From positions 1,488,001-1,552,000 of the forward strand of contig NZ_CP093301.1 in assembly GCF_024362785.1 (NCBI RefSeq): 64,000 bases of DNA, written 5' to 3'. The DNA is from Evansella sp. LMS18. GTDB taxonomy: Bacteria; Bacillota; Bacilli; Bacillales; Salisediminibacteriaceae. This document shows, piece after piece, positions 8,587 to 20,335 of this stretch. Every line of letters starts with the position of its first letter. The stretch's first letter is position 1. Under the pieces are notes generated by a model that searched no databases, had not been told where the DNA came from, and saw only the letters and a program-made list of their open reading frames with translations. The position numbers were made by a program, and so were the translations under genes.

Positions 8587-9741
8587 TTACTTGTTTTTAC
8601 TGAGCACATCAAAGGCTACAGCACCAAGCAGTACAAGCCCTTTAATAGCCTGCTGCCAGTCAGTGCCTATTCCCATTAAACTCATACCGTTATTTAGTAC
8701 ACCCATTACAAGGGCACCAATGATGGCTCCGAAAATAGTACCAACACCGCCAGTGAAGGAAGCTCCGCCAATAACAGCGGCAGCGATGGCATCCAGCTCA
8801 AACAGCTGCCCTGCCTGTGGTGTTGCAGCGTTCAGCCTGGAGGCAAATACGAGACCTGCAAGTGCCGCTAAAAATCCCATATTTACAAAAGCTAAGAATT
8901 TCATCTTCTTTGTACGAACCCCTGATAACTTGGCAGCATTCGCATTGCCGCCGACTGCATAGATGTGACGGCCAAGCACTGTCTTGTTCATAACAAATGT
9001 ATAGCCAAGGACAAGAGCGATTAAGATTAAAGCTACCACAGGGAGCCCCTGATATTGTGATAAGACGAAAGTAAAGGCATTGATTACCAGTATGATGATG
9101 AGGATCTTACTAACAAACAATGCAAAAGGTGTAGTATTGAAATTATAGTAATTTGCCGCCCTGCGCTGCTGCAGTTCATAAATCACGTAAATTAAGGAAG
9201 CTGCTCCTCCAATTAATAATGTAAGAAGCTTCAGTTCCCCTGCTGAAATATCAGGAAGGAATGCAGAACTCATCGTTCTGAACTCTCCTGGGAATGGGGC
9301 AATCGTGCGTCCACCAAGAACAACTAATGTTAACCCCCTGAACAGGAGCATCCCCGCAAGAGTAACTACAAAGGCCGGAATATTCATGTATGCTACCCAG
9401 AATCCCTGCCATGCACCAATCGCAGCCCCCAGGAGTAAACAAAGAATTATCCCCATGTATACAGGGAGATCAAGTGTTACAAGAAGGACACCGGCAACAG
9501 CACCGACAAAGGCTGCCACCGAACCTACCGACAGGTCAATTTCGCCAGTGATAATCACTATCATCATTCCGATTGCAAGAATAATAATATAGCTGTTTTG
9601 CATAATAATGTTCGTAATGTTTAATGGAGTTAATAAAGCGCCGCCTGTTAAAATTTGAAATAAGAGAGCGATTCCAACCAGGGCGATGATCATTCCAAAC
9701 CGGCGTACGTTATTTGTAATAGCTTCTTTTAAAGTATTCAT
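8587..9741 (-). CDS. gguB: Sugar ABC transporter permease, GguB/AraH type
   Basis: The membrane component of a monosaccharide importer in the ribose/xylose permease family (BPD_transp_2). The 384 residues contain about ten hydrophobic helices. The conserved [17 protein letters not shown] segment and the C-terminal [15 protein letters not shown] segment are diagnostic. The start overlaps the end of the ATPase gene by 4 bp, indicating translational coupling. Its place between the ATPase and araD makes arabinose the likely substrate, although GguAB/ChvE-type systems can take several sugars. Confidence 0.92.
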
Positions 9742-11276
9742 GCTTCTTCCCTCCCGCTTTCGGTCATATAGGTCATTAGTTTTTCCTGATCTGCTTCTTC
9801 TGCTGAAATTTCTCCAGTAATCCGTCCTTCATTTATGGTGTAAATTCTGTCACATATACCGAGAAGTTCTGGCAGTTCAGATGAAATAACAATGATTGAT
9901 TTCCCTGACTCCGCCAGTGAATTGATAATTTTATAGATTTCAAACTTAGCGCCAACATCAATGCCCCGTGTTGGTTCATCAAGAATTAATACTTCAGGTT
10001 CAGCGTTAAGCCATTTTCCCAGAACAACTTTCTGCTGGTTACCACCGCTTAAGTTTCCTGTGCTTTGTTCTATCGTCGGTGTTTTTATATTCATTTTTTG
10101 CCTTAAATCCTCAGCAACCTTTACTTCCTTATGAAGATCCAGCAGATTTTTTGATGTAATGGAACTCAGATTTGCAAGAGTAAGATTCTTACGGACACTG
10201 TCCATAAGGATGAGCCCGTATTCTTTTCTGTTTTCAGAGACGTAGGCAAGCCCGTTATCAATAGCTTTGTCCACTGTTTTTACATTGATTTCCTTGCCTT
10301 CTTTATAAACCGTACCGGTGATTTTTTTACCATAAGAACGGCCGAACACACTCATTGCAAACTCGGTCCGCCCAGCGCCCATCAGGCCGGCCATACCAAC
10401 AACTTCACCTTTTCGGACATTCATATGTATATCTTTTAAAATCTGTCTGCCCGCATCCAGGGGGTGGAACGCATTCCAGTCCTTCACTTCAAAGTAGATA
10501 TCGCCGATTTCCGCACTTCTTTCCGGATAAAGATTTGCCAGATCACGTCCAACCATTCCTTTGATGATCTTTGCCTCGGTCACTTCATCCTTCTCCATGG
10601 ACATAGAGCTTACCGTCTGTCCATCACGGAGAATTGTAATATGGTCTGCAATAGACAGGAGCTCTTTCAGTTTGTGGGAAATAAGAATCGAGGTCATCCC
10701 CTGCCCCTGAAACTCTTTAAGCAGCCTCAGCAAGTTAGCGCTGTCTTCTTCATTTAAAGAAGCAGTAGGTTCGTCGAGAATAAGAAGTTCTACGTCTTTC
10801 GATAAAGCCTTGGCTATCTCTACCAGTTGCTGCTGGCCGACACCAATGTTTTTGATTTTTTCCTGGGGATTTATATTTAAACCAACCTTTTTTAATAGCT
10901 CAGTAGTTTTCAAAATTGTTTCGTTCCAGTTAATAATTCCTCTTTCGGCTCTTTCATTGCCTAAAAATATATTTTCTGCAATTGATAATTCAGGGATTAA
11001 AGCCAGTTCCTGATGAATGATAACTATACCTTTTTCTTCACTTTCATTAATCGACTTAAATTCGCATAGTTCATCTCTGTAAAAAATCTCTCCGTCATAT
11101 GTTCCAAAAGGGTGAACCCCGCTTAACACTTTCATTAATGTGGATTTACCTGCACCATTTTCACCGATAAGCGCATGAATAGACCCTTGTTCAACTTGCA
11201 AATTAACATCGTCTAGTGCTTTTACACCCGGGAATGTCTTTGTTATATGCTTCATCTCCAGAATGAACCCGCTCAC
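9738..11276 (-). CDS. gguA: Sugar ABC transporter ATP-binding protein, GguA/AraG type
   Basis: A duplicated ATPase energising the arabinose importer. The first half has Walker [10 protein letters not shown], signature [14 protein letters not shown] and Walker [12 protein letters not shown]. The second half has a degenerate P-loop (GLMGAGRTE), [15 protein letters not shown] and [15 protein letters not shown], as usual in this family. A TTG opens the frame at 11312, but GTG at 11276 is preferred. It gives [17 protein letters not shown], the normal N-terminus, and is preceded by AAGAAGGG at a somewhat long spacing of 10-11 bases. The final codons overlap the permease start. Confidence 0.92.
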
Positions 11277-11300
11277 ATTCTTCACACCCTTCTTAATTTC

Positions 11301-11341
11301 GTGAAAAGGCAATCCGGCAAGAATACCAGACTGCCTTTCAC
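11301..11341 (-). promoter_or_regulatory. Stem-loop between binding protein and ATPase genes
   Basis: GTGAAAGGCA pairs with TGCCTTTTCAC (one bulge), with further pairing inside, just after the binding-protein stop. There is no T-run. Such intra-operon hairpins commonly keep binding-protein mRNA more abundant than the downstream messages; that role here is inference. Confidence 0.5.
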
Positions 11342-11348
11342 AAGATCC

Positions 11349-12464
11349 TTACTCTAATTCTTCAGCATCATAGTAGCCGGTATCTACTAAAACTTCCTCG
11401 TAGTTATTAACATCTACAGAGATTGGCTCAAGAAGATAAGATGGCACTACCTTAGCGCCGTTGTCATATGTTTCCGTATCATTTACTTCAGGCTCTTCAC
11501 CGTTCAGTACAGCATCTGCCATGTTTACAGCCTGTCGTGCAAGTTCACGAGTATCTTTAAAAATTGTCTGTGTCTGATCACCGGAAATAATGTACTTAAT
11601 AGAACTCAACTCCGCATCCTGCCCTGTAATGATCGGCATTGGCTTGCTGTCAGTTCCGTATCCTACAGAGCTGAGAGACGAAGAAACACCACGGCTGATA
11701 CCATCAAACGGTGAATAAACCACATCGATGTCTTCATCTGAGTAATGAGCACTTAACAGGTTGTCCATACGTTCCTGAGCTAAAGAACCGTCCCAGCGAA
11801 GGGTTGCACCCTGCTCAAATTCTGTCTGTCCGCTTTTTACAACAAGCTGTCCGCCGTCAATATACGGATCAAGCACAGACATTGCACCATCCCAGAAGAA
11901 ATATGCGTTATTGTCATCCGGAGAACCTGCGAAAAGTTCAATATTGAAAGGACCTTCTTCTCCTTCATCAAGCCCAAGGCTTTCAACAATATAACTACCT
12001 TGCTGAACACCTACTTCAAAGTTATCGAATGTAGCATAATAGCTCACATGTTCACTGTTCATAATCAGACGGTCATATGCGATAACCGGAATATCAGAAG
12101 CTTCCGCCATTTCAAGTACGCTTGTTAGTGCTTCCCCATCAATGGAAGCGATTACAAGGAGATCCGCACCTTGAGTGATCATGTTTTCGATCTGGGCAAC
12201 CTGGTTCTCTACAACGTCTTCTCCATACTGCATATCAACTTCGTAACCAAGAGCTTCGAATTCTGCCGCCATATTTTCCCCATCACGAACCCAGCGCTCA
12301 GATGATTGAGTAGGAAGAGCAAGACCTACTTTATAGCCATTAGCCTCGGTATCTCCTCCGCCGTTGTTTGTACCTCCGTTTGCATCAGCATTTTCATCTC
12401 CGCCGCATGCAGCCATAGTGACCAGCATTGATACAGAAAAAAGAGACATCAATAATTTCTTCAT
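11349..12464 (-). CDS. Sugar ABC transporter substrate-binding lipoprotein (ChvE type)
   Basis: An extracytoplasmic sugar-binding protein of the periplasmic-binding-protein 4 fold, anchored as a lipoprotein. The signal peptide [14 protein letters not shown] ends in the lipobox TMAAC, followed by a G/N/D-rich linker and then [20 protein letters not shown]. The ATG at 12464 has an AAGGGGG site. The same frame runs 74 codons further upstream but has no suitable start or signal there. First gene of the gguAB-araDBA operon; AraR-like sites and a cre box lie upstream. Arabinose or a set of monosaccharides is the probable ligand. Confidence 0.92.
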
Positions 12465-12496
12465 TACCTGCTTCCCCCTTGAAATAATAGATTTAC

Positions 12497-12510
12497 AGAA
12501 AACGCTTACA
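12497..12510. promoter_or_regulatory. cre box (CcpA site) in the ara operon leader
   Basis: AGAAAACGCTTACA, or TGTAAGCGTTTTCT on the coding strand, fits the catabolite-responsive element pattern. It is 33 bp upstream of the binding-protein start, consistent with CcpA-dependent glucose repression. Confidence 0.65.
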
Positions 12511-12538
12511 TAATAAAAATTAAAAATACACCCCCTAA

Positions 12539-12553
12539 ACTTGTACGAACGTC
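12539..12553. promoter_or_regulatory. AraR operator-like half-palindrome
   Basis: ACTTGTACGAACGTC shares TTGTACG with the AraR-like sites at 4590 and 12690. It lies 75 bp upstream of the binding-protein start. One arm is degenerate. Confidence 0.45.
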
Positions 12554-12689
12554 CCAATGTATATTCTAGTGACGTTTGCAACTCGTCCGTATAAGATGAT
12601 AGTTCAATTATATTCCTATGTAGTCTAATAAACAATAGTTTTTTTATAAAATTATTAAGAATATTTAATAGTTTTATATATTTCACAAA

Positions 12690-12704
12690 AGTTGTACGTA
12701 TAGG
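12690..12704. promoter_or_regulatory. AraR operator upstream of the arabinose operon
   Basis: AGTTGTACGTATAGG is nearly identical to the site in front of araR. Together with the site at 12539, about 150 bp away, it could allow looping repression as described for B. subtilis AraR. The looping is inference. Confidence 0.6.
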
Positions 12705-12711
12705 TTGGTAC

Positions 12712-12741
12712 TGGTGCCTGTTACCACCTAGATAATCTTGT
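12712..12741 (-). repeat. REP-like element copy 3 (degenerate)
   Basis: GGTGCCTGTTACCACC followed by TAGATAATCTTGT matches the hairpin and joint of the element with a few substitutions. The GTGAAACA boxes are no longer recognisable. It lies next to the upstream AraR-like site and does not follow a gene end. Confidence 0.55.
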
Positions 12742-12854
12742 ATCCGGAAGTTGTTCGTTGTACTTCGGAAGCAATTCCATTAATATTTATTCAACCTTTT
12801 ATACCTCATAGGAAGAAGTCTTAGATACACTTTTCGCATTTTCCCCCTCCTGGT

Positions 12855-12968
12855 TGTGCAATCCACCTTCCAAATCGTGCGATCAAGGTCCAAATTTGTG
12901 CGAACAAACCTCCATCCTGTTCGTTCAAACCCAAATTTGTGCGAACAAACCTCCATCCTGTGCGAATT
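12855..12968 (+). repeat. 21-bp phased GTGCRA array 1
   Basis: Boxes GTGCAA, GTGCGA, GTGCGA, a decayed TCGTTC, GTGCGA and GTGCGA have their GC dinucleotides at 12858, 12879, 12900, (12921), 12941 and 12962, spacing 20-21 bp. Sequence between boxes varies. The array lies between the terminator of the Ycf46 operon and the upstream region of the ara operon. Confidence 0.75.
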
Positions 12969-12987
12969 GCCTCTCTAAGCCGCACAG

Positions 12988-13020
12988 AAAAGCAGGTGCC
13001 CCATGGACACCTGCATAAAA
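12988..13020 (-). terminator. Terminator of the Ycf46 operon
   Basis: GCAGGTG pairs with CACCTGC across a 9-base loop. On the minus strand a TTTTC tail follows, 50 bp after the last stop codon of the operon. Confidence 0.75.
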
Positions 13021-13033
13021 GTTGAACTCCAAA

Positions 13034-13069
13034 CGTGAAACATTCTCTGTCCGAGCGGTGACATACACC
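13034..13069 (+). repeat. REP-like element copy 4 (degenerate, touches a stop codon)
   Basis: CGTGAAACATTC is followed directly by CCGAGCGGTGACATACACC. The second GTGAAACA box is deleted and the hairpin is mutated. Its last base is the first base of the stop codon complement of the AAA+ gene (TAG on the minus strand). Confidence 0.65.
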
Positions 13070-14631
13070 TATACCAAAACATTCCTGGGGCCTTTTCTTC
13101 TCAGGCTGCTCGCCTGGTCCATTTGTGTCTCATCAAAGGCTTTTCCTGCTGGTACAGCTCTTTCCCGTCCCCATGTTCTGATCTGGTCAATCTGTTCCGG
13201 GCTCGTCTGGGAAAGTGGAACGACGTTTTCGAAGTAGTTAATAAAGGTTTCGTCAGTAATGGAATCATCGCCATTAATATATGCCTGTTTGACAACGTCC
13301 CTCACCGCTGCTTCCAGATCCGCTCCGGCAAAGCCGTCAGATATCTGTACAAGTCTCTCCATTAAATCTGCGTCAATTTCACGCTTCAATCCTTTTTTAA
13401 TATAGATACGGATAATTTCTTCACGTTCTTTTTTGTTCGGAAGGTCTACAAAGAACAATTCGTCGAAACGCCCGCGCCTGAGTAATTCCGGCGGAAGCTG
13501 GGAAACGTCGTTTGCAGTGGAAACAACAAATACACGTGCCAGGCTTTCCTGCAGCCAGTACAAAAACTGACCCACAAGCCTGGTGGATGTTCCCCCATCG
13601 CCACCGCCAGTTGCACCTGCAAGCCCCTTCTCGATTTCATCAATCCAGAGCACACAAGGAGCTACATGATCTGCAGTGGAAAGTGCTTCTTTTAATCTTC
13701 CTTCACTCTGCCCTAAGTACTGGCCGTGAATTGTCGAGAGATCTAACCGATACAAAGGCAAGTTCCACTGGGACGCAATCGCTTTTGCTGAGAGGGATTT
13801 ACCGCAGCCTGGAACACCCACCAGCAAAATACCCCGGGGCGGGCGGATTCCCCGGTCCCGCAGATCTGCAGTAAGCAGCTTTTCATTAGCCCCGAGCCAC
13901 TTTTTCAGCCCTTCCAGTCCGCCTACCTGGTAATCCTCTCTTACATGGACTCTTTCAATACCAGATATATCTGCAAAAATACGGTCTTTTGCATGCATCA
14001 GTTCTTTAAGGTCTTCATTTCGGATAGCTCCGTTTGCGAGCAAAGTCGCAATGACGTTTTCCGCCTCTATCTGGGAGATCCCAGCCAGTATCGCAGCAGC
14101 TTTTTTCTCTTCTTCTTCTCCCCACTCAATTGGAAATTCACCACGGTATGGGTGGATCTGATCCTGAATCAGTTCCAGCATTTCGTCTTCATTCGGCGGA
14201 GCAAGAGTGATGGACATTCCCAGCCGTTGCAGCGGCCCCCAGACTGAGTTGTTTGTTATAACAACGATACTGCCCCCTGTCTCTGTTGCAAACATCGCAA
14301 GGTCCTGGAACTGCCTTGCTGTCGGCGTATCATCTTCAAGATCCTGGACTTCGGTAAAAATAAAAGTCAGGTTCTGCTGCTGGGCGATTCTCTGATTGGC
14401 AAAGTCCAATCCTCCCATGATGGAGCGGTCATCATTTACAAGCCTGTTTGAAACAATATCCCTTGTACCTTGGGAAATCGTATGAAAAAACACGGAAATA
14501 TTATGTTTATTAGCAAGCTGTGCAGCAATTTCCAAAGCCCTGGAGCGCTCAGATGTGCGTATAGAAATAAAAGGAATTCTCGCCTTTAAATAGCTTTCCA
14601 GTGTATTTAAACAAGTTTTTAAGTCATTCAT
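13069..14631 (-). CDS. AAA+ ATPase of the Ycf46 type
   Basis: A 520-residue ATPase resembling Ycf46 of plastids and cyanobacteria. An N-terminal degenerate RecA-like region (~1-150) precedes a full AAA+ module: Walker A GVPGCGKS (272-279), Walker B VLWIDEI (327-333), a sensor-1-like VVSTANDVSQLP, an arginine-finger-like LLRRGRFDELFF (~384-394), and a C-terminal helical lid. It is probably a hexameric remodelling ATPase in the cytosol; its target is unknown. The ATG overlaps the preceding stop as ATGA, so translation is coupled. It is the last gene of a five-gene operon whose other members I cannot assign, which suggests they are its substrates or adaptors. Confidence 0.85.
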   Translation of the reverse strand: MNDLKTCLNTLESYLKARIPFISIRTSERSRALEIAAQLANKHNISVFFHTISQGTRDIVSNRLVNDDRSIMGGLDFANQRIAQQQNLTFIFTEVQDLEDDTPTARQFQDLAMFATETGGSIVVITNNSVWGPLQRLGMSITLAPPNEDEMLELIQDQIHPYRGEFPIEWGEEEEKKAAAILAGISQIEAENVIATLLANGAIRNEDLKELMHAKDRIFADISGIERVHVREDYQVGGLEGLKKWLGANEKLLTADLRDRGIRPPRGILLVGVPGCGKSLSAKAIASQWNLPLYRLDLSTIHGQYLGQSEGRLKEALSTADHVAPCVLWIDEIEKGLAGATGGGDGGTSTRLVGQFLYWLQESLARVFVVSTANDVSQLPPELLRRGRFDELFFVDLPNKKEREEIIRIYIKKGLKREIDADLMERLVQISDGFAGADLEAAVRDVVKQAYINGDDSITDETFINYFENVVPLSQTSPEQIDQIRTWGRERAVPAGKAFDETQMDQASSLRRKGPRNVLV

Positions 14632-15182
14632 GTAATAATCACTCGTCTCTTAGATGATCTGAATCCGGTTCCTCTTTGCGGCGAGGAAGATGCATTGTCA
14701 TTATTAGCAGTGTCCAAATACGTGTGCTCAACTTTGTCAAACTGAGTTATTGCGTTGTTTTTTATTAGCATTCGTAATCTGCCTGTACGGTCCGTTTTCG
14801 CACTATCCATCATTGACTGCTCTGTGCTCTTAGCATAATCCTTTAATATGCTGCCCATCGATTCCCTCACATTCTCCGGGAAAGCATCCAGCTGAGCAAC
14901 ACGGTTCATCAGTGCCAGCCGCTTTCTCGCAGATAACAGGGCTTTAACGATTCTGGCTTCATCGCCATTGGAACGATCCAGCTCTTTTTGCATACGGTCC
15001 GCAGATTCATTCAGCCTGTGTTTAATAGTTTCGTAGAGAGCATCCGTCAGTCTTTCAGCCACACCTCTTGTCCACTCGATGGAGCCTTGTTCCATTACAA
15101 GGATGGTCTGCTCATCGTTCGTGCCTTCTTTTAAGCTGTCAAAACAATTTATCCACTCAGCATAGCTTTTTGGTGGTCTCAT
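14628..15182 (-). CDS. Unknown helical protein, 184 aa, in the Ycf46 operon
   Basis: I do not recognise this family. It is soluble and mostly helical. Residues ~35-135 are rich in heptad-like patterns (RLTDALYETIKHRLNE, MQKELDRSN). A polar, serine- and asparagine-rich tail (~155-175) ends in a basic stretch with RSSKRRVIIT. Both ends overlap neighbours by ATGA junctions: the 62-residue gene upstream and the AAA+ gene downstream. That implies tightly coupled synthesis and perhaps a complex with the ATPase. Confidence 0.75.
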   Translation of the reverse strand: MRPPKSYAEWINCFDSLKEGTNDEQTILVMEQGSIEWTRGVAERLTDALYETIKHRLNESADRMQKELDRSNGDEARIVKALLSARKRLALMNRVAQLDAFPENVRESMGSILKDYAKSTEQSMMDSAKTDRTGRLRMLIKNNAITQFDKVEHTYLDTANNDNASSSPQRGTGFRSSKRRVIIT

Positions 15183-15367
15183 AGAAGCTTCGAGCTCCTT
15201 CTTTTCACAAGGGTTGATGGCGGCTTAAGATCCCAGGCAGGAAATTGAGTTGCAAGTGCCTCATTCACTGTTTGCTTTTCAATCTCTTCCATTTTCTTAT
15301 GAAACTTATTATCTTCATTGCTTTTATTCCTGTTTAACAGAGCTCCCTGATTGTCATTCTGGCTCAT
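15179..15367 (-). CDS. Unknown small protein, 62 aa, in the Ycf46 operon
   Basis: A small, charged and probably partly disordered protein (MSQNDNQGALLNRNKSNED) without recognisable motifs. A TTG five codons earlier opens the frame, but ATG at 15367 is chosen, with GGAGGG placed correctly before it. The stop overlaps the start of the 184-residue gene (ATGA). Its position between the membrane protein and the 184-residue protein, with coupled translation, argues that it is a real gene. Confidence 0.65.
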   Translation of the reverse strand: MSQNDNQGALLNRNKSNEDNKFHKKMEEIEKQTVNEALATQFPAWDLKPPSTLVKRRSSKLL

Positions 15368-15386
15368 TTTAATACCCTCCAATTAT

Positions 15387-17084
15387 TTATTTTACTACTG
15401 CACGCGCGGTATCAAAACTGGAAAATGAATATTGTTCCGGCGAAATACTTTCTAAGAATTCTGTTACAATAACAGCATTTTCGTCCTCTTCTTTGTACTC
15501 TTTACGGTAATCAACTACTTCTGCCAGACAGGCTCTTAAAATCTCTCTGCTGTTAGAGAGTAAATTATCAAATTCTGCAATAATACTGTCTTTCCTTGTT
15601 TGCAAGTTTTTCTTGCCTAAATAAAAGTAAATAAAACAGAATGCCGCAAGTACAAATAAAAAGGTTGTGCCAAAACCTAAGAATGTAAAAACTACACCGC
15701 CGGCTAAAGCAGCCCAGTGCTTCAAATCAAGCTTTACTTTAGAGAGGGCCTCATCACAACGGTTAACCATATAAGTTTCCAGAGAGCCAGTTAATTCCCC
15801 TTCATTAGACCCGTCTTCTGTTTTTCCCTGCCACTGATTAATGGATAAATCCACCTGTAAAGGAATTCCTGCACGGTTTTCGGCGGTAATATCATCATGA
15901 GCCGTTTTAATCCAATCTTTTGACAAAGCGATGGAAAATTTCTGTGTAGCTATCGAGGCATTGGACATATCCGGGTGCATCGCGAAGTTTGTAAGCAGTT
16001 GTGTGAAGCTGACTCGCTTCTCCGTTGTCTTTTCATTATCAAACAGCTGCTGTGCCCTGGATTTATCACCATTTTCCTGAATGGTTAACGACAATAATCG
16101 TTCCTCACTTCTAAGCGGCAACTCTTCTTCATCGAATTTCGAAACAAGGGTATCTAGCAATGCATCAACAGCAAATGCTATGTTTTTAGCAGGAGAAACT
16201 TCTTTTTGAAAAATATCATTAAAGTACTCCCCAATGATCTTATGAAGTTTAGCCCCTTCAAGGGAAGATTGAAGTCCGCTCCATGTAGGGCTGTATTTAC
16301 GTAAAAACGGGTATGACTCATCATCCAGCTTAGGCAGCCTGGACTCGAGAGCTGTTTTCCACTGCTCATGCTGCTCTTCCACAAATCCCGTCTTTTGTGA
16401 TAATTCATCGATCCAGGCACTGATTTTTTTACCAGTTTTTGCCCTTGCGTCAGGACCGAAAATTCCGTTAGTAAATCCGTCAATTAATATAACAATCTCT
16501 CTTTCCAGATTGTGTGGATCCTGGAGGCCAAAATAACGGTCAAGCCACTCGCGGCTGGATTTATACCTTGCACCTCTTCGTGTTACAAGCGCAAAAAATA
16601 AAGAAGTTTTCTCATCATTTCTTCTGATTGCTTCTCTCATTGCCTTCTCCGCCAGTTCTTCATTGTCATTCAGCCAGGCAGATAAAGCGATAAGACACGG
16701 AGCCAGCCAGTAACGGGGAGCAGAGAGCATTTGCTCTTCTGATGAATTCGCAATCGTTTCTTTTTTAACCAGACTTACGTCGACCGCCTGAAGAATACCA
16801 GTCACCCGTCTTCTTACATCGCCATAATGACCGAAGTTTGTTTCAAGTTCCTGTCTTACTTTTACAAGTCTTGTTTCAGACAATTGCACGTTTTTCTCTA
16901 ACTGGTCTTTCCTTACAAATTCCTGAAACTCTGCGATTAAGTTTTCAAGAGTTGCACGGGCCTCGTGCACTTCTGCATTTACATGGTTAACCTGGTCGGA
17001 AACAACTCCAATATTGTCATTCAGCGTGTTTATATTGTTTTCAAGTCTGCTAAGGTCTGCTGTATGTATAACACGTTCTGACAT
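15387..17084 (-). CDS. Coiled-coil membrane-anchored protein, 565 aa, in the Ycf46 operon
   Basis: I do not recognise this family. Residues ~8-85 form a long coiled coil (LENNINTLNDNIGVVSDQV). A central region (~115-450) is helical and soluble, with a repeat-like stretch around YWLAPCLIALSAWLNDNEE. Residues ~456-490 are strongly hydrophobic, broken near the middle, so either a membrane hairpin or one long transmembrane helix. About 75 charged helical residues follow. There is no signal peptide. Both long domains may lie in the cytosol with a membrane-inserted hairpin between them. It is the largest product of the operon and a plausible scaffold for the AAA+ ATPase. Confidence 0.8.
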   Translation of the reverse strand: MSERVIHTADLSRLENNINTLNDNIGVVSDQVNHVNAEVHEARATLENLIAEFQEFVRKDQLEKNVQLSETRLVKVRQELETNFGHYGDVRRRVTGILQAVDVSLVKKETIANSSEEQMLSAPRYWLAPCLIALSAWLNDNEELAEKAMREAIRRNDEKTSLFFALVTRRGARYKSSREWLDRYFGLQDPHNLEREIVILIDGFTNGIFGPDARAKTGKKISAWIDELSQKTGFVEEQHEQWKTALESRLPKLDDESYPFLRKYSPTWSGLQSSLEGAKLHKIIGEYFNDIFQKEVSPAKNIAFAVDALLDTLVSKFDEEELPLRSEERLLSLTIQENGDKSRAQQLFDNEKTTEKRVSFTQLLTNFAMHPDMSNASIATQKFSIALSKDWIKTAHDDITAENRAGIPLQVDLSINQWQGKTEDGSNEGELTGSLETYMVNRCDEALSKVKLDLKHWAALAGGVVFTFLGFGTTFLFVLAAFCFIYFYLGKKNLQTRKDSIIAEFDNLLSNSREILRACLAEVVDYRKEYKEEDENAVIVTEFLESISPEQYSFSSFDTARAVVK

Positions 17085-17088
17085 GTAA

Positions 17089-17574
17089 TCACCCCTTAAT
17101 TATTGACACATCTCCCCGCAAGTTAACTGCGCGAAGTGTGTCTGTATAAACTTCGATAAACTCATAGCCTGGATGTAACGCGAGACTCTTCCCCCGCGCC
17201 AGTTCTGTCGGGACACCTTCTCCCTTTTTATAATGCCGGATGATATCTAATTTAGTATCAAGTGTATGAACATCGTATTCGTTCCCAAGATAACATTTTG
17301 CGATAATGCCGATTGGGAACTGATAGGGCTGGAGATCAGGAAATTCATTTTTAATTTCCTGAATTAGCTGGGCCACCTCGCCGTGCTTGCATTGAACCCC
17401 GCCTGCATCGAGCTTCGCCATTGCTTCAACATATGTATGTGATCTTTTCTGGCGTAACCGTTTGTCAAGGGAAAGCCCGGTATACTCCACCATTGTCCTC
17501 GTTTCCACACTGGAATCAACCTTGACATTAACTTTGCTGTTAGTTTGTGTGTTCAGTAACGGCCTTCTCCTCAT
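17089..17574 (-). CDS. Unknown protein, 161 aa, first gene of the Ycf46 operon
   Basis: I do not recognise this family. The first ~30 residues are basic and polar (MRRRPLLNTQTNSKVNV). The rest looks like a compact alpha/beta domain with a single conserved-looking CKHGEVAQLIQEI segment and the C-terminal GYEFIEVYTDTLRAV. The AAGGAGAAGGTGAG leader gives an unambiguous ATG. Its stop is 4 bp from the start of the coiled-coil gene. It may be an adaptor or regulatory subunit; nothing in the sequence decides this. Confidence 0.75.
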   Translation of the reverse strand: MRRRPLLNTQTNSKVNVKVDSSVETRTMVEYTGLSLDKRLRQKRSHTYVEAMAKLDAGGVQCKHGEVAQLIQEIKNEFPDLQPYQFPIGIIAKCYLGNEYDVHTLDTKLDIIRHYKKGEGVPTELARGKSLALHPGYEFIEVYTDTLRAVNLRGDVSIIKG

Positions 17575-17867
17575 CTCACCTTCTCCTTAGGACTCGTATT
17601 TTTTCACAGTCGTTCAAGTTTCCTGAGTGCATCCATCCGGGGGTCTCCAGGAAATGAGAGCTTATTCCTGTGAACTTCCTCCCTATTACACTCTATCTGC
17701 GCTTCCAGTTCGTTACTTCCCTCCTAGTTTTGTGAATTAATTCGTAGTACAAAATAATTATATATGAACCTATAATACCAAATTATTGTTATAATTTGTC
17801 TTAAAAATTGTATATTTTTTCACTTTTTTCTAACTAAATGCTTTGCCGTGTAAAATTAGTTATTTAG

Positions 17868-18095
17868 GAAGGAACGGGAGGACAGAAGGACGCTCTTTCG
17901 TTACTTCTTTCCGGTGTTGATACCTTCATTGGAGTGCAAGAAGACTTTGCTCTACCAGAATCAGAGCTATGCAACACCCTGTACCTAATTCAGCATCAAG
18001 ATTACACAAGATTAATGAAAAGACAGACTGCCTCTAACGATAGTCTGCCTGAAGATCAGCATAATTTCTCTGCATTATTATCGTCCATGTATTAG
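17868..18095 (+). pseudogene. Open frame without start codon ending at a terminator
   Basis: This 648-bp gap between operons holds one plus-strand frame open for 75 codons with a protein-like reading (for example SGVDTFIGVQEDFALPE and QDYTRLMKRQ). It is closed by TAG inside a strong plus-strand terminator stem. No ATG, GTG or TTG stands at its beginning, so it looks like the 3' remnant of a deleted gene. The alternative is a small RNA ending at the terminator. The AT-rich left part, 17740-17850, probably carries the promoter of the Ycf46 operon, but I could not fix its boxes. Confidence 0.35.
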
Positions 18096-18116
18096 TAATT
18101 GGACGATAATTTTTTC
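18077..18116 (+). terminator. Rho-independent terminator (plus strand)
   Basis: ATTATCGTCCA pairs perfectly with TGGACGATAAT across 12 bases and is followed by a T-run. No complete plus-strand gene precedes it, which supports a decayed gene or an RNA here. Confidence 0.75.
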
Positions 18117-18222
18117 CCCTTGAATATGATTAAATATATAGTGAGCCAGCGTTTTCCTCTCCTTTTGCTGGGATTGAGCCTGGAAGTTCTGTAATAGGTA
18201 TTTACTATACCAGGCACCGCTA

Positions 18223-19968
18223 TTAAAACAACTCTATCCATTTTACAGGAGTACCTTCACTACTATCTTCAAAATGGAAATGTAATCTATGGTTGTTAAT
18301 GTTATAGGAAAGCATATGGGTAAGATCTAGTTCATTAAATCCTTCACTTTCAGGCAGTCCTAAAACATCTATGACTAGCTGGTAGGTAATCTGATCTTTT
18401 ATATGGTTTATTGGATACAGGGTCATCCCAATAACTATTTCAGAACCATCCCCATTAAACCCTACCATATAATCCCCATGGTCAAAGATATAGCGATAGC
18501 CTCCCCGGTCCTCCCAGATTTCTACGGGACTCCCAAATGAATGAATCAAGTCATCCGGCGTACTGCCTATTGTGGCAAACTCCTCACCTAATATTCCTTT
18601 TCCAACGTAATTTAACAACTCTCTTAAATATGAATAAGCTCCTTCTCCCTCTTCTTGCTGCGTTTCTTCTTCCGTTTCTTCCTCCCTTTCTTCTTCCTTC
18701 CAATTTTCCTCTTCAGCAACGACAGCATTTCCCTCTAGATCCTGCACATAGTTAATACCAGTCTTATCCCCCGAAAAAGCATTATATATTTCCTCGCCCA
18801 CGTCAAAATCATATTCCACTTCTTCAACTTTTTTCATCGTCCAGTTGTCCACATCCAATTTCATTGTTGTAAATGTCCAAATCCAATCCACATTATTGTA
18901 ATTAACTACTAGAAACTTATTCGGTCCCGTCTGTTTAACCACAGCATCGAAAGAGGAGAACGCTGCAACATTTTTCAACCCATCGTCTGTAAGAGCGTAA
19001 ATGTCAACCACATTGACATTCTGAGCTTCCACCCACCCGAACACCAGAAGATCCGGTGAATTTTCAACAACATAAGGCCTCCCAATGTTCGTATTTATAG
19101 TCATATTTTCCATAATAACTTCCTGCTTATAGTACTCTCCTGTCTGTTCGTTTTGGACCACTGCACGGTAATCCCCTTTTAAAATTAAATCTCCGGCATG
19201 CCCAAAAGGAGACGGCTCATCAAGCATAGACGTTTCCTCGTTATCCGAGTAAAAAAAGACGTTATAGCTGTTTCCATGCTTATCTCTCATCTTTGTTGCA
19301 AAAGAGGCTTTGTTTTTGTCATAACCGTCCAAAAGTTCCCCAGCATTAAAAGTTAATATCTGATCCAGCATATCCTGATAAACTGTATTCCCAGTCATTT
19401 TATACGCCTTTGGGAGAAAATCCATTAGCTTCTCTTCACTTTCCTGATATTCGTACAAGTCAACTAAAGCTTCAATGCCAGATAGGCGGCCTATATCATC
19501 CTCAACCATTTCCTTAAAGATGTTTTCTGCCTCAGAGTACCTTTCTTTCTTCAAATAAAAGTCAGCTAAAAATTCCCTTAATCTAAGTGTCTCTTTCACA
19601 TTCTTAATTCCAGATCTGATTGTTTCCACCACTAAATCGTCTTCTTCTGCAGAAACATAGATTTCTCCGAGTCTCAAATAAAATTGCTCATTTTCCGGCT
19701 CAAGTTTGATCACTTCCTCATATGCCAGCGTTGCTTCCCTATAATTACCTTCAAAAGCAAAAGCCTCTGCTGAAGCGACTATCTCCTCAATCCGTTCTGC
19801 TTCAGTCTGTTCTGCTTCTTCATTTTGTTTCACTTCAGCATTTTGTTCCGCTTTTTCATTTTGTTCCGCTTCAGCTTGCTCAGCGTCAGTCTCCTCAGAG
19901 CAAGCCGCTAACAGTAAAACAGCCAGTAAGTACACGAAAGCACCATTAATCGGAATTCTCAACTGCAT
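18223..19968 (-). CDS. TPR-containing lipoprotein, 581 aa
   Basis: A signal peptide with lipobox LLLAAC is followed by a low-complexity linker (~25-55) of repeated E/Q/A/K motifs such as EQNEKAEQNAE. TPR-like repeats (~60-200: EAFAFEGNYREATLAYEEV and RYSEAENIFKEM) come next, then a beta-rich middle. After a glutamate-rich spacer (~425-445) a C-terminal domain resembles the DUF4309 type found in Bacillus cell-surface proteins. It is probably exposed on the outer face of the membrane. The function is unknown. A short remnant resembling the REP-like hairpin end (CCAGGCACCGC) precedes the stop on the plus strand. Confidence 0.75.
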   Translation of the reverse strand: MQLRIPINGAFVYLLAVLLLAACSEETDAEQAEAEQNEKAEQNAEVKQNEEAEQTEAERIEEIVASAEAFAFEGNYREATLAYEEVIKLEPENEQFYLRLGEIYVSAEEDDLVVETIRSGIKNVKETLRLREFLADFYLKKERYSEAENIFKEMVEDDIGRLSGIEALVDLYEYQESEEKLMDFLPKAYKMTGNTVYQDMLDQILTFNAGELLDGYDKNKASFATKMRDKHGNSYNVFFYSDNEETSMLDEPSPFGHAGDLILKGDYRAVVQNEQTGEYYKQEVIMENMTINTNIGRPYVVENSPDLLVFGWVEAQNVNVVDIYALTDDGLKNVAAFSSFDAVVKQTGPNKFLVVNYNNVDWIWTFTTMKLDVDNWTMKKVEEVEYDFDVGEEIYNAFSGDKTGINYVQDLEGNAVVAEEENWKEEEREEETEEETQQEEGEGAYSYLRELLNYVGKGILGEEFATIGSTPDDLIHSFGSPVEIWEDRGGYRYIFDHGDYMVGFNGDGSEIVIGMTLYPINHIKDQITYQLVIDVLGLPESEGFNELDLTHMLSYNINNHRLHFHFEDSSEGTPVKWIELF

Positions 19969-20213
19969 TACCCCTCTTTTCCTTTAAAAATTGAGCCTTG
20001 TCTTAATGGTTTTGATCTTTGAAAACTCATGGTTAAAACAGCATCATTACATTCTTAAAGTAAGTAGGCAGGGGCAGCAAAATATAGTAAATGGCTTCTG
20101 GGTGGTCCACTTATTAGTTCTGTTCTATATCTTAGTAGTAAACACCTCTAATAATTCCAAATAAAGAACACTTTTGTAAAAGTGTACTAAAATGGAGGTA
20201 ACATTTAGCATAC
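19969..20213. other. Intergenic region, no gene seen
   Basis: It carries the upstream region of the TPR lipoprotein gene. No open frame with a plausible start and no clear promoter were found. Confidence 0.5.
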
Positions 20214-20262
20214 AAAAGGCCAATCCTCCGCTGATAAGTCAGCGGGAGACTGGCCTCTTTAT
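20214..20262. terminator. Terminator after the peptide-binding protein gene
   Basis: AAAGGCCA pairs with TGGCCT, with CCGCTGA/TCAGCGG inside it. T-rich sequence follows on both sides. Confidence 0.75.
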
Positions 20263-20335
20263 TTATATATTTTTTTCCTAACGATACAGCAGGTACCTAT
20301 ACCAAGAGAAAACTGGCACCATCCACGAACCACCA

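What the first reader, a model, noticed from the sequence alone, without database searches (positions are those of the whole stretch)
13069..17574. Five-gene operon around a Ycf46-type AAA+ ATPase with no known function
An adaptor-sized protein, a coiled-coil protein with an internal membrane hairpin, a 62-residue protein, a 184-residue helical protein and a full AAA+ ATPase are packed with 4-19 bp gaps and two ATGA overlaps. Only the ATPase is recognisable. The strict coupling suggests a complex assembled on the membrane. This is my best candidate for an undescribed multi-protein system in the window.
Basis: partly seen in the sequence, partly recalled or inferred. Interest (0 to 1): 0.7.

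Follow-up and report, generated by a model that had tools for sequence, protein, structure and literature searches.

The report
Five-gene mobile AAA+ membrane cassette
Five neighbouring genes, only one of which (an ATP-driven protein-remodelling motor) resembles anything known, turn out to be an inseparable set that moves between distantly related bacteria, plasmids and a phage satellite, so they very probably build one undescribed molecular machine at the cell membrane whose job is still unknown.

Summary
In detail: five minus-strand genes (13069-17574), gaps of 4 and 19 bp, two ATGA overlaps, a terminator just after the last gene. The set travels as a unit. Of 27 loci found through the 565-aa or ATPase protein (Bacilli, other Bacillota, Fusobacterium, two proteobacterial plasmids, a Streptococcus satellite phage, two IMG/VR contigs), 27 carry all five, in two main orders. 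77 more distant Ycf46-like ATPase loci carry none of the four partners. The cassette ATPases form one clade (100/100). In the window the cassette lies in a 7.6-kb stretch missing from a relative about 95% identical on both sides. New: the proteins share a terminal [RK]xPhiPhi peptide (N-terminus of the 161-aa protein 27/27; C-terminus of the ATPase 26/26; C-termini of the 184- and 565-aa proteins about 60%) against 6-10% of other proteins, suggesting a common docking code. Zinc-ribbon proteins lie near 8 of 27 cassettes and 0 of 18 control stretches. Function stays open: a membrane-anchored AAA+ remodelling machine is best supported; anti-phage defence is possible (phage satellite, one Drt2 neighbour) but defence genes were not enriched. 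The four partners match no known family.

The parts
17089..17574 (-). gene A, 161-aa protein, no known family; invariant C94, H103, H114, D56, E141 across 27 homologues
17233..17295 (-). C94...H103...H114 of A: candidate metal or catalytic Cys-His-His site (H103 and H114 on facing strands of a predicted hairpin)
   Evidence: inference
17554..17571 (-). N-terminal RRRPLL of A, the shared [RK]xPhiPhi terminal peptide
15387..17084 (-). gene B, 565-aa protein: N-terminal coiled coil, helical middle, C-terminal helical bundle with membrane hairpin
15609..15728 (-). membrane hairpin of B (residues about 453-492)
15390..15404 (-). C-terminal RAVVK of B (shared terminal peptide, 17 of 27 homologues)
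15179..15367 (-). gene C, 62-aa protein; in four other loci C carries a zinc ribbon
15197..15244 (-). conserved tail of C, FPAWDLKPPSTLVKRR (consensus [LF]PxWD[LI]xPPxx[LV][VI][RK]R), absent from 2.06 Mb of non-cassette DNA
14628..15182 (-). gene D, 184-aa helical protein; invariant Y7, W10, G33
14631..14651 (-). C-terminal KRRVIIT of D (shared terminal peptide; 16 of 27, missing where D ends early)
13069..14631 (-). gene E, 520-aa Ycf46-like AAA+ ATPase with intact Walker A (GVPGCGKS), Walker B (LWIDEIEK), sensor 1 and arginine finger
13072..13086 (-). C-terminal RNVLV of E (shared terminal peptide, 26 of 26 homologues with an intact C-terminus)
12992..13014 (-). intrinsic-terminator-like stem-loop after E
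12665..20309 (.). 7.6-kb stretch (cassette plus a TPR/DUF4309 lipoprotein gene) absent from the closest relative compared, whose flanks are 94-95% identical

Best explanation
A horizontally mobile, obligately five-subunit AAA+ remodelling machine anchored at the cytoplasmic membrane. E is a working Ycf46/Cdc48-like ATPase (shown: intact catalytic motifs; inferred: hexamer and unfolding activity). B is the membrane anchor and scaffold, with cytoplasmic coiled coil and helical domains on either side of a hairpin (shown: conserved hydrophobic hairpin; inferred: topology). A, E and often B and D end in the same [RK]xPhiPhi peptide at a flexible terminus, and C ends in a fixed PxWDLxPP..VRR peptide; I infer that these tails dock the subunits on one shared receptor surface or mark the complex for (dis)assembly by E. 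A, with an invariant Cys-His-His set, is the likeliest carrier of an enzymatic or zinc-dependent activity. C and neighbouring genes bring in zinc-ribbon proteins. The machine most likely senses or handles an envelope or infection-type stress and remodels a membrane-bound client on ATP hydrolysis. It is accessory cargo, gained and lost as a block, not a housekeeping system.
For: All five genes in 27 of 27 loci across Bacillota, Fusobacteriota, Pseudomonadota and a phage satellite; pairwise distances of A, B, D and E correlate (Mantel r 0.64-0.87, 0 of 2000 permutations); cassette ATPases one clade 100/100; 138 invariant residues in E; terminal peptide far above shuffles (A 27/27 against 1.1; E 26/26 against 1.1; D 16/27 against 1.3; B 17/27 against 1.5); hydrophobic hairpin in all 27 B; present in the window but not in a relative 94-95% identical on both flanks; absent from the 198 other relatives searched; Zn-ribbon genes near 8/27 cassettes against 0/18 controls, including 2-3 of the 4-5 TcaA-type genes of f49 genomes.
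Against: No interaction, structure or phenotype was available. Structure models of A and B are of low to middling confidence (pLDDT 65). Distance correlation is also expected from linked inheritance alone. The D and B tails are missing in about 40% of homologues, so a universal docking role is not established. The Zn-ribbon link is concentrated in a few related families.
Confidence: 0.55

Rival explanations
1. An anti-phage defence system: A or B is a lethal or blocking effector held inactive by the complex, and E releases or assembles it on infection.
For: Cassette is the terminal cargo block of Streptococcus satellite phage Javan368; directly beside a Drt2 reverse transcriptase in L130 (PADLOC E 6.6e-127); in L038 near HerA-like, Prok-E2_E and JAB-ThiF genes; large ATPase or TPR proteins and a tyrosine recombinase next to it at one site in L126, L151 and L152; patchy, mobile distribution.
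Against: PADLOC hits are not enriched among 108 flanking proteins (one clear system, Drt2) compared with 108 control proteins; no PADLOC hit for A-D; stable chromosomal sites beside ordinary genes in several genera; no recognised effector domain.
Confidence: 0.3
2. An envelope-stress or cell-wall quality-control module working with zinc-ribbon TcaA/YvbJ-type membrane proteins.
For: Zn-ribbon genes in 8/27 cassette neighbourhoods against 0/18 controls; TcaA/YvbJ Pfam domains lying on different sides of the cassette in related genomes, 2-3 of 4-5 genomic copies; C itself has a zinc ribbon in four loci; B is a predicted membrane protein.
Against: Most cassettes, the window's included, have no Zn-ribbon neighbour; the association is mainly in one family (f49); does not explain carriage on a phage satellite.
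Confidence: 0.3
3. An intracellular alpha-pore system: B resembles ClyA/AhlB/SmhB-type alpha-pore-forming proteins and is inserted or extracted by E.
For: The best rows for the model of B include many alpha-pore proteins (AhlB, SmhB, MakA, XaxB, ClyA); Foldseek probability up to 0.87, VIA-align Z up to 7.4 over 228 residues at 8.7 A rmsd; conserved hairpin inside a helical bundle.
Against: Foldseek E 0.12 and TM 0.2; Z under the level expected by chance for helical bundles; model confidence middling; F-BAR and chemoreceptor coiled coils score nearly as well.
Confidence: 0.1
4. Five unrelated accessory genes kept together only by chance or recent common transfer.
For: All but E are of unknown function, and the cassette is mobile.
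Against: 27/27 co-occurrence over three phyla, with gene order rearranged at least twice yet no partner lost.
Confidence: 0.02

Closest known systems
Ycf46-like AAA+ ATPases (some with DUF1257/Ycf35 and DUF2997 neighbours)
   Same: E aligns end to end at 30-37% with such plasmid and phage ATPases (N-terminal non-AAA domain plus one AAA module), and to PHROG 8638 over residues 8-508
   Different: separate 100/100 clade; the DUF1257/DUF2997 partners seen beside some relatives are absent, and A-D are present instead
Cdc48/VCP, Rix7/NVL and Afg2 AAA modules
   Same: nearest solved AAA domains
   Different: E has one recognisable AAA module and a different N-terminal domain
IetAS and other AAA-containing defence systems (PADLOC)
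   Same: generic AAA similarity of E to IetA
   Different: similarity limited to the AAA domain; no partner matches
TcaA/YvbJ zinc-ribbon membrane proteins
   Same: zinc ribbon in some C proteins; frequent neighbours in one family
   Different: no sequence match to any of the five
Bub/Bil ubiquitin-like immune operons
   Same: one locus (L038) has Prok-E2_E and JAB-ThiF genes close by
   Different: single case; the cassette itself has no recognised E1, E2, JAB or ubiquitin-like gene

Membership tests
Ycf46-like AAA+ ATPase | single AAA module with intact Walker A/B, sensor 1, arginine finger | tested here: met
Ycf46-like AAA+ ATPase | full-length similarity including the N-terminal domain to Ycf46-like proteins | tested here: met
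Ycf46-like AAA+ ATPase | genomic neighbourhood with DUF1257 (Ycf35)/DUF2997 (an association of part of the family, not a strict criterion) | tested here: not met
   A-D have no Pfam hit to these; some relatives do have them
known anti-phage defence system (PADLOC 2.0) | hit of partners to a system-specific model | tested here: not met
   no hit for A-D; E only generic IetA
known anti-phage defence system (PADLOC 2.0) | enrichment in defence neighbourhoods | tested here: inconclusive
   Drt2 beside L130 only; flanks and controls similar
known anti-phage defence system (PADLOC 2.0) | protection against phage | not testable with these tools
   needs experiment
alpha-pore-forming proteins (ClyA/AhlB type) | fold of B | tested here: inconclusive
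phage-satellite cargo | located in the accessory end of a satellite | tested here: met
   one case, Javan368 9674-14254 of 14257 bp with integrase at the other end; not general

The most novel reading that the evidence does not exclude
A new class of mobile immune or stress machine: an AAA+ ring that drives a membrane effector, its subunits being wired together by one shared terminal [RK]xPhiPhi peptide code, read by a common receptor site, with interchangeable zinc-ribbon sensors.
Probability: 0.2. Interest if true: 0.85.

Novelty: new variant of a known kind. Interest (0 to 1): 0.62.

Why it matters
Four protein families with no annotation in Pfam, NCBIfam, PHROGs or PADLOC are tied to one another and to a defined clade of AAA+ motors across three phyla, which turns five 'hypothetical' genes into one testable machine. 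A shared terminal peptide on several subunits of one complex would be an unusual assembly or recycling code and is open to direct test. If the function is defence, this is a system that the catalogue searched here misses; if envelope stress, it gives a route to the unexplained zinc-ribbon TcaA/YvbJ proteins.

Tried and rejected
Chance clustering: rejected (27/27). Known defence system: no match for A-D in PADLOC. Defence-island enrichment: tested with 108 flanking and 108 control proteins and not seen; proteins over 900 aa, such as the HerA-like one of L038, were left out of that count. Solved-structure sequence searches for A, B and D gave nothing (weak annexin and coiled-coil rows look like composition). 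Fold searches: A no credible match, B only the weak alpha-pore resemblance and nothing in viral models; both models are of middling confidence, so absence of a match says little. IMG/VR scans with the single protein found nothing and with alignments only two contigs with the cassette. E. coli genomes: no DNA match to the Comamonas cassette. Neighbouring genes do not carry the terminal peptide above background (14/299), so it does not mark neighbours as clients. The window's own lipoprotein (18223-19968) has no homologue in the other cassette loci, so it is not counted as a sixth part. Clean target-site duplications of the 7.6-kb stretch were not found; the relative seems to have an IS remnant there (by eye only). 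No paper describing the set was found in full-text searches, which hold only open-licence papers.

Full report
OBSERVATION. The gaps are 4 and 19 bp and the last two junctions are ATGA overlaps. A stem-loop terminator with a T-run lies about 55 bp past the stop of E. Pfam recognises only the AAA+ module of E above its cut-off, NCBIfam gives E only sub-cut-off AAA matches; PHROGs place the whole of E in family 8638 of unknown function and find nothing credible for A-D; PADLOC gives only generic AAA similarity to IetA.

THE SET TRAVELS TOGETHER. B or E was used to find relatives in plasmids, phages, IMG/VR, genome contigs and about 1,900 genomes. Full cassettes were found in 'Oceanobacillus manasiensis' (L023), a Comamonas antarctica megaplasmid (L020), a Komagataeibacter plasmid (L021), a Fusobacterium vincentii record (L022), a Streptococcus satellite phage (L036), a further Bacillota contig (L024), two IMG/VR contigs (L037, L038) and 18 Bacilli genomes (L125-L134, L149-L156). 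With the window that makes 27 loci, and all 27 have all five genes on one strand, mostly with short gaps or overlaps. One more hit, G1110, is a contig-end fragment and was not examined. Three orders occur: ABCDE, BCDEA and once B-A-C-D-E with an 850-bp gap. The BCDEA loci form one clade of the ATPase tree. The cassette is rare: 1 of 199 relatives, the window's own genome; 11 of 399 genomes of the class (three further rows there at E about 1e-4 are short coiled-coil matches and not counted); 4 of 301, 4 of 345 and 5 of 200 in three focused, overlapping scans.

NOT EVERY YCF46-LIKE ATPASE HAS IT. 77 loci with E relatives at about 30-45% identity, from Bacillota genomes and IMG/VR contigs, have none of A-D. 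Some such relatives lie beside DUF1257 and DUF2997 genes. In a maximum-likelihood tree of 70 ATPases the 25 intact cassette ATPases are one side of a branch with support 100/100 and a stem of 1.63 changes per site. So the partners belong to one clade of the family. Distances among A, B, D and E correlate across loci (r 0.64-0.87), as expected for genes inherited together.

MOBILITY. In the satellite phage the cassette is the last block, at the end opposite the integrase. In L037 two large serine-recombinase-like genes follow it (by eye; not run through Pfam). The Fusobacterium, Streptococcus and L037 cassettes group together in the tree, which points to transfer between phyla. In the window, DNA on both sides is 94-95% identical to a congeneric genome (window 12664 and 20310 against L177 15264 and 13933), while the 7.6 kb between them, cassette plus a TPR/DUF4309 lipoprotein gene, is replaced there by 1.3 kb of unrelated DNA. 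Gain in one or loss in the other cannot be told apart from two genomes, but absence from the other congeners favours gain.

ANATOMY. E keeps Walker A, Walker B and sensor 1 in 27/27 and the arginine-finger motif in 26/27 (the E genes of L024 and L154 are interrupted in the assemblies). Its nearest solved AAA domains are of Cdc48/VCP type. B has a hydrophobic hairpin near its C-terminal end in every homologue; a moderate-confidence model shows a long N-terminal helix, a helical middle and a better-predicted C-terminal bundle with the hairpin. A has 13 invariant residues in 27 homologues, including C94, H103 and H114; in the low-confidence model H103 and H114 fall on the two strands of one hairpin, so a metal or catalytic site is a reasonable guess. 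C is variable except for the tail [LF]PxWD[LI]xPPxx[LV][VI][RK]R, which was found nowhere else in 2.06 Mb of non-cassette DNA; C carries a zinc ribbon in L038, L126, L151 and L152. D has Y7, W10 and G33 invariant.

A SHARED TERMINAL PEPTIDE. Lining up the ends of the proteins showed the same short pattern, [RK]-x-hydrophobic-hydrophobic, at the N-terminus of A (27/27; typical MPRPIL) and at the C-termini of E (26/26; typical RxVLV), D (16/27; RRVIL) and B (17/27; RAVV). Shuffling the terminal 30 residues gives means of 1.1 to 1.5. In 299 other proteins of these bacteria it occurs in 6% of C-termini and 10% of N-termini, and 14 of 299 neighbours of the cassettes have it at the C-terminus. 8 of 77 distant ATPases have it, several of them one phage group. 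The pattern was chosen after looking at the sequences, and related sequences are not independent, so this is not a formal test; but the margin is large and the residues just before it in E are variable. I read it as a docking or recycling signal common to the subunits; this is inference.

NEIGHBOURS. N-terminal zinc-ribbon proteins occur within 8 kb of 8 of 27 cassettes and in none of 18 control stretches (0 of 387 ORFs). In family f49 these are TcaA/YvbJ-type proteins: four of the genomes have 4-5 TcaA_5th copies, of which 2-3 lie at the cassette, on different sides in different genomes. The window's genome has two such copies, neither near the cassette. Controls came from only some of the same genomes, and the loci are related, so this is a lead rather than proof. 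Defence genes were looked for in the same way: a Drt2 reverse transcriptase stands next to the cassette in L130, and HerA-like, Prok-E2_E and JAB-ThiF genes lie in L038, but 108 flanking proteins gave no more PADLOC hits of substance than 108 control proteins. Bub-type operons, ubiquitination-like, are described as putative immune pathways without shown phage protection (PMC13373217).

EXPLANATION. The evidence supports a conserved, mobile, five-gene system with an ATPase whose catalytic motifs are intact and a predicted membrane-embedded subunit. That the five form one complex, that the tails hold it together and that E remodels a membrane client are inferences. Anti-phage defence and envelope-stress handling fit about equally well; the satellite-phage and Drt2 contexts speak for the first, the zinc-ribbon link for the second.

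NOVELTY. The motor is of a known kind; the partners and the assembly are not in the libraries searched. I therefore call it a new variant of a known kind rather than categorically new.

Noticed in passing
window 490, 3399, 22966, 25505, 27344, 30027, 32549, 34344, 36625, 41800, 56473, 61450 and degenerate at 12713: A dispersed repeat of about 60 bp (two GTGAAACA units, then a GGTGnnnnnCACC hairpin) is present in 12-13 copies in 64 kb against none expected. A degenerate copy lies at the left edge of the 7.6-kb stretch with the cassette and another copy at the other edge in the relative, so it may mark a recombination-prone site.
   Followed up: partly
window 12890-12964: Two 34-bp direct repeats, 97% identical and starting 41 bp apart, just downstream of the terminator of gene E.
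   Followed up: no
L038 2916-5957, 14752-15381, 15388-16845: HerA-like ATPase, prokaryotic E2 (family E) and JAB-ThiF fusion genes around the cassette, which look like a ubiquitin-like conjugation locus.
   Followed up: partly
L151 2060-4567; L126 8901-11198; L152 13688-15997: At one chromosomal site (next to tpx-like and valS-like genes, by eye) the cassette is followed by different large ATPase or TPR proteins and a tyrosine recombinase in related genomes.
   Followed up: partly
L030, L031, L040, L047 and other distant ATPase loci; L179: Distant Ycf46-like ATPases recur beside small proteins, some of them DUF1257 or DUF2997, and radical-SAM-like genes, as if a second AAA+ system of unknown function were common in phages and plasmids.
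   Followed up: partly
L024 and L154: The ATPase gene is interrupted by an apparent frameshift or stop in two cassettes; assembly error or decay was not decided.
   Followed up: no
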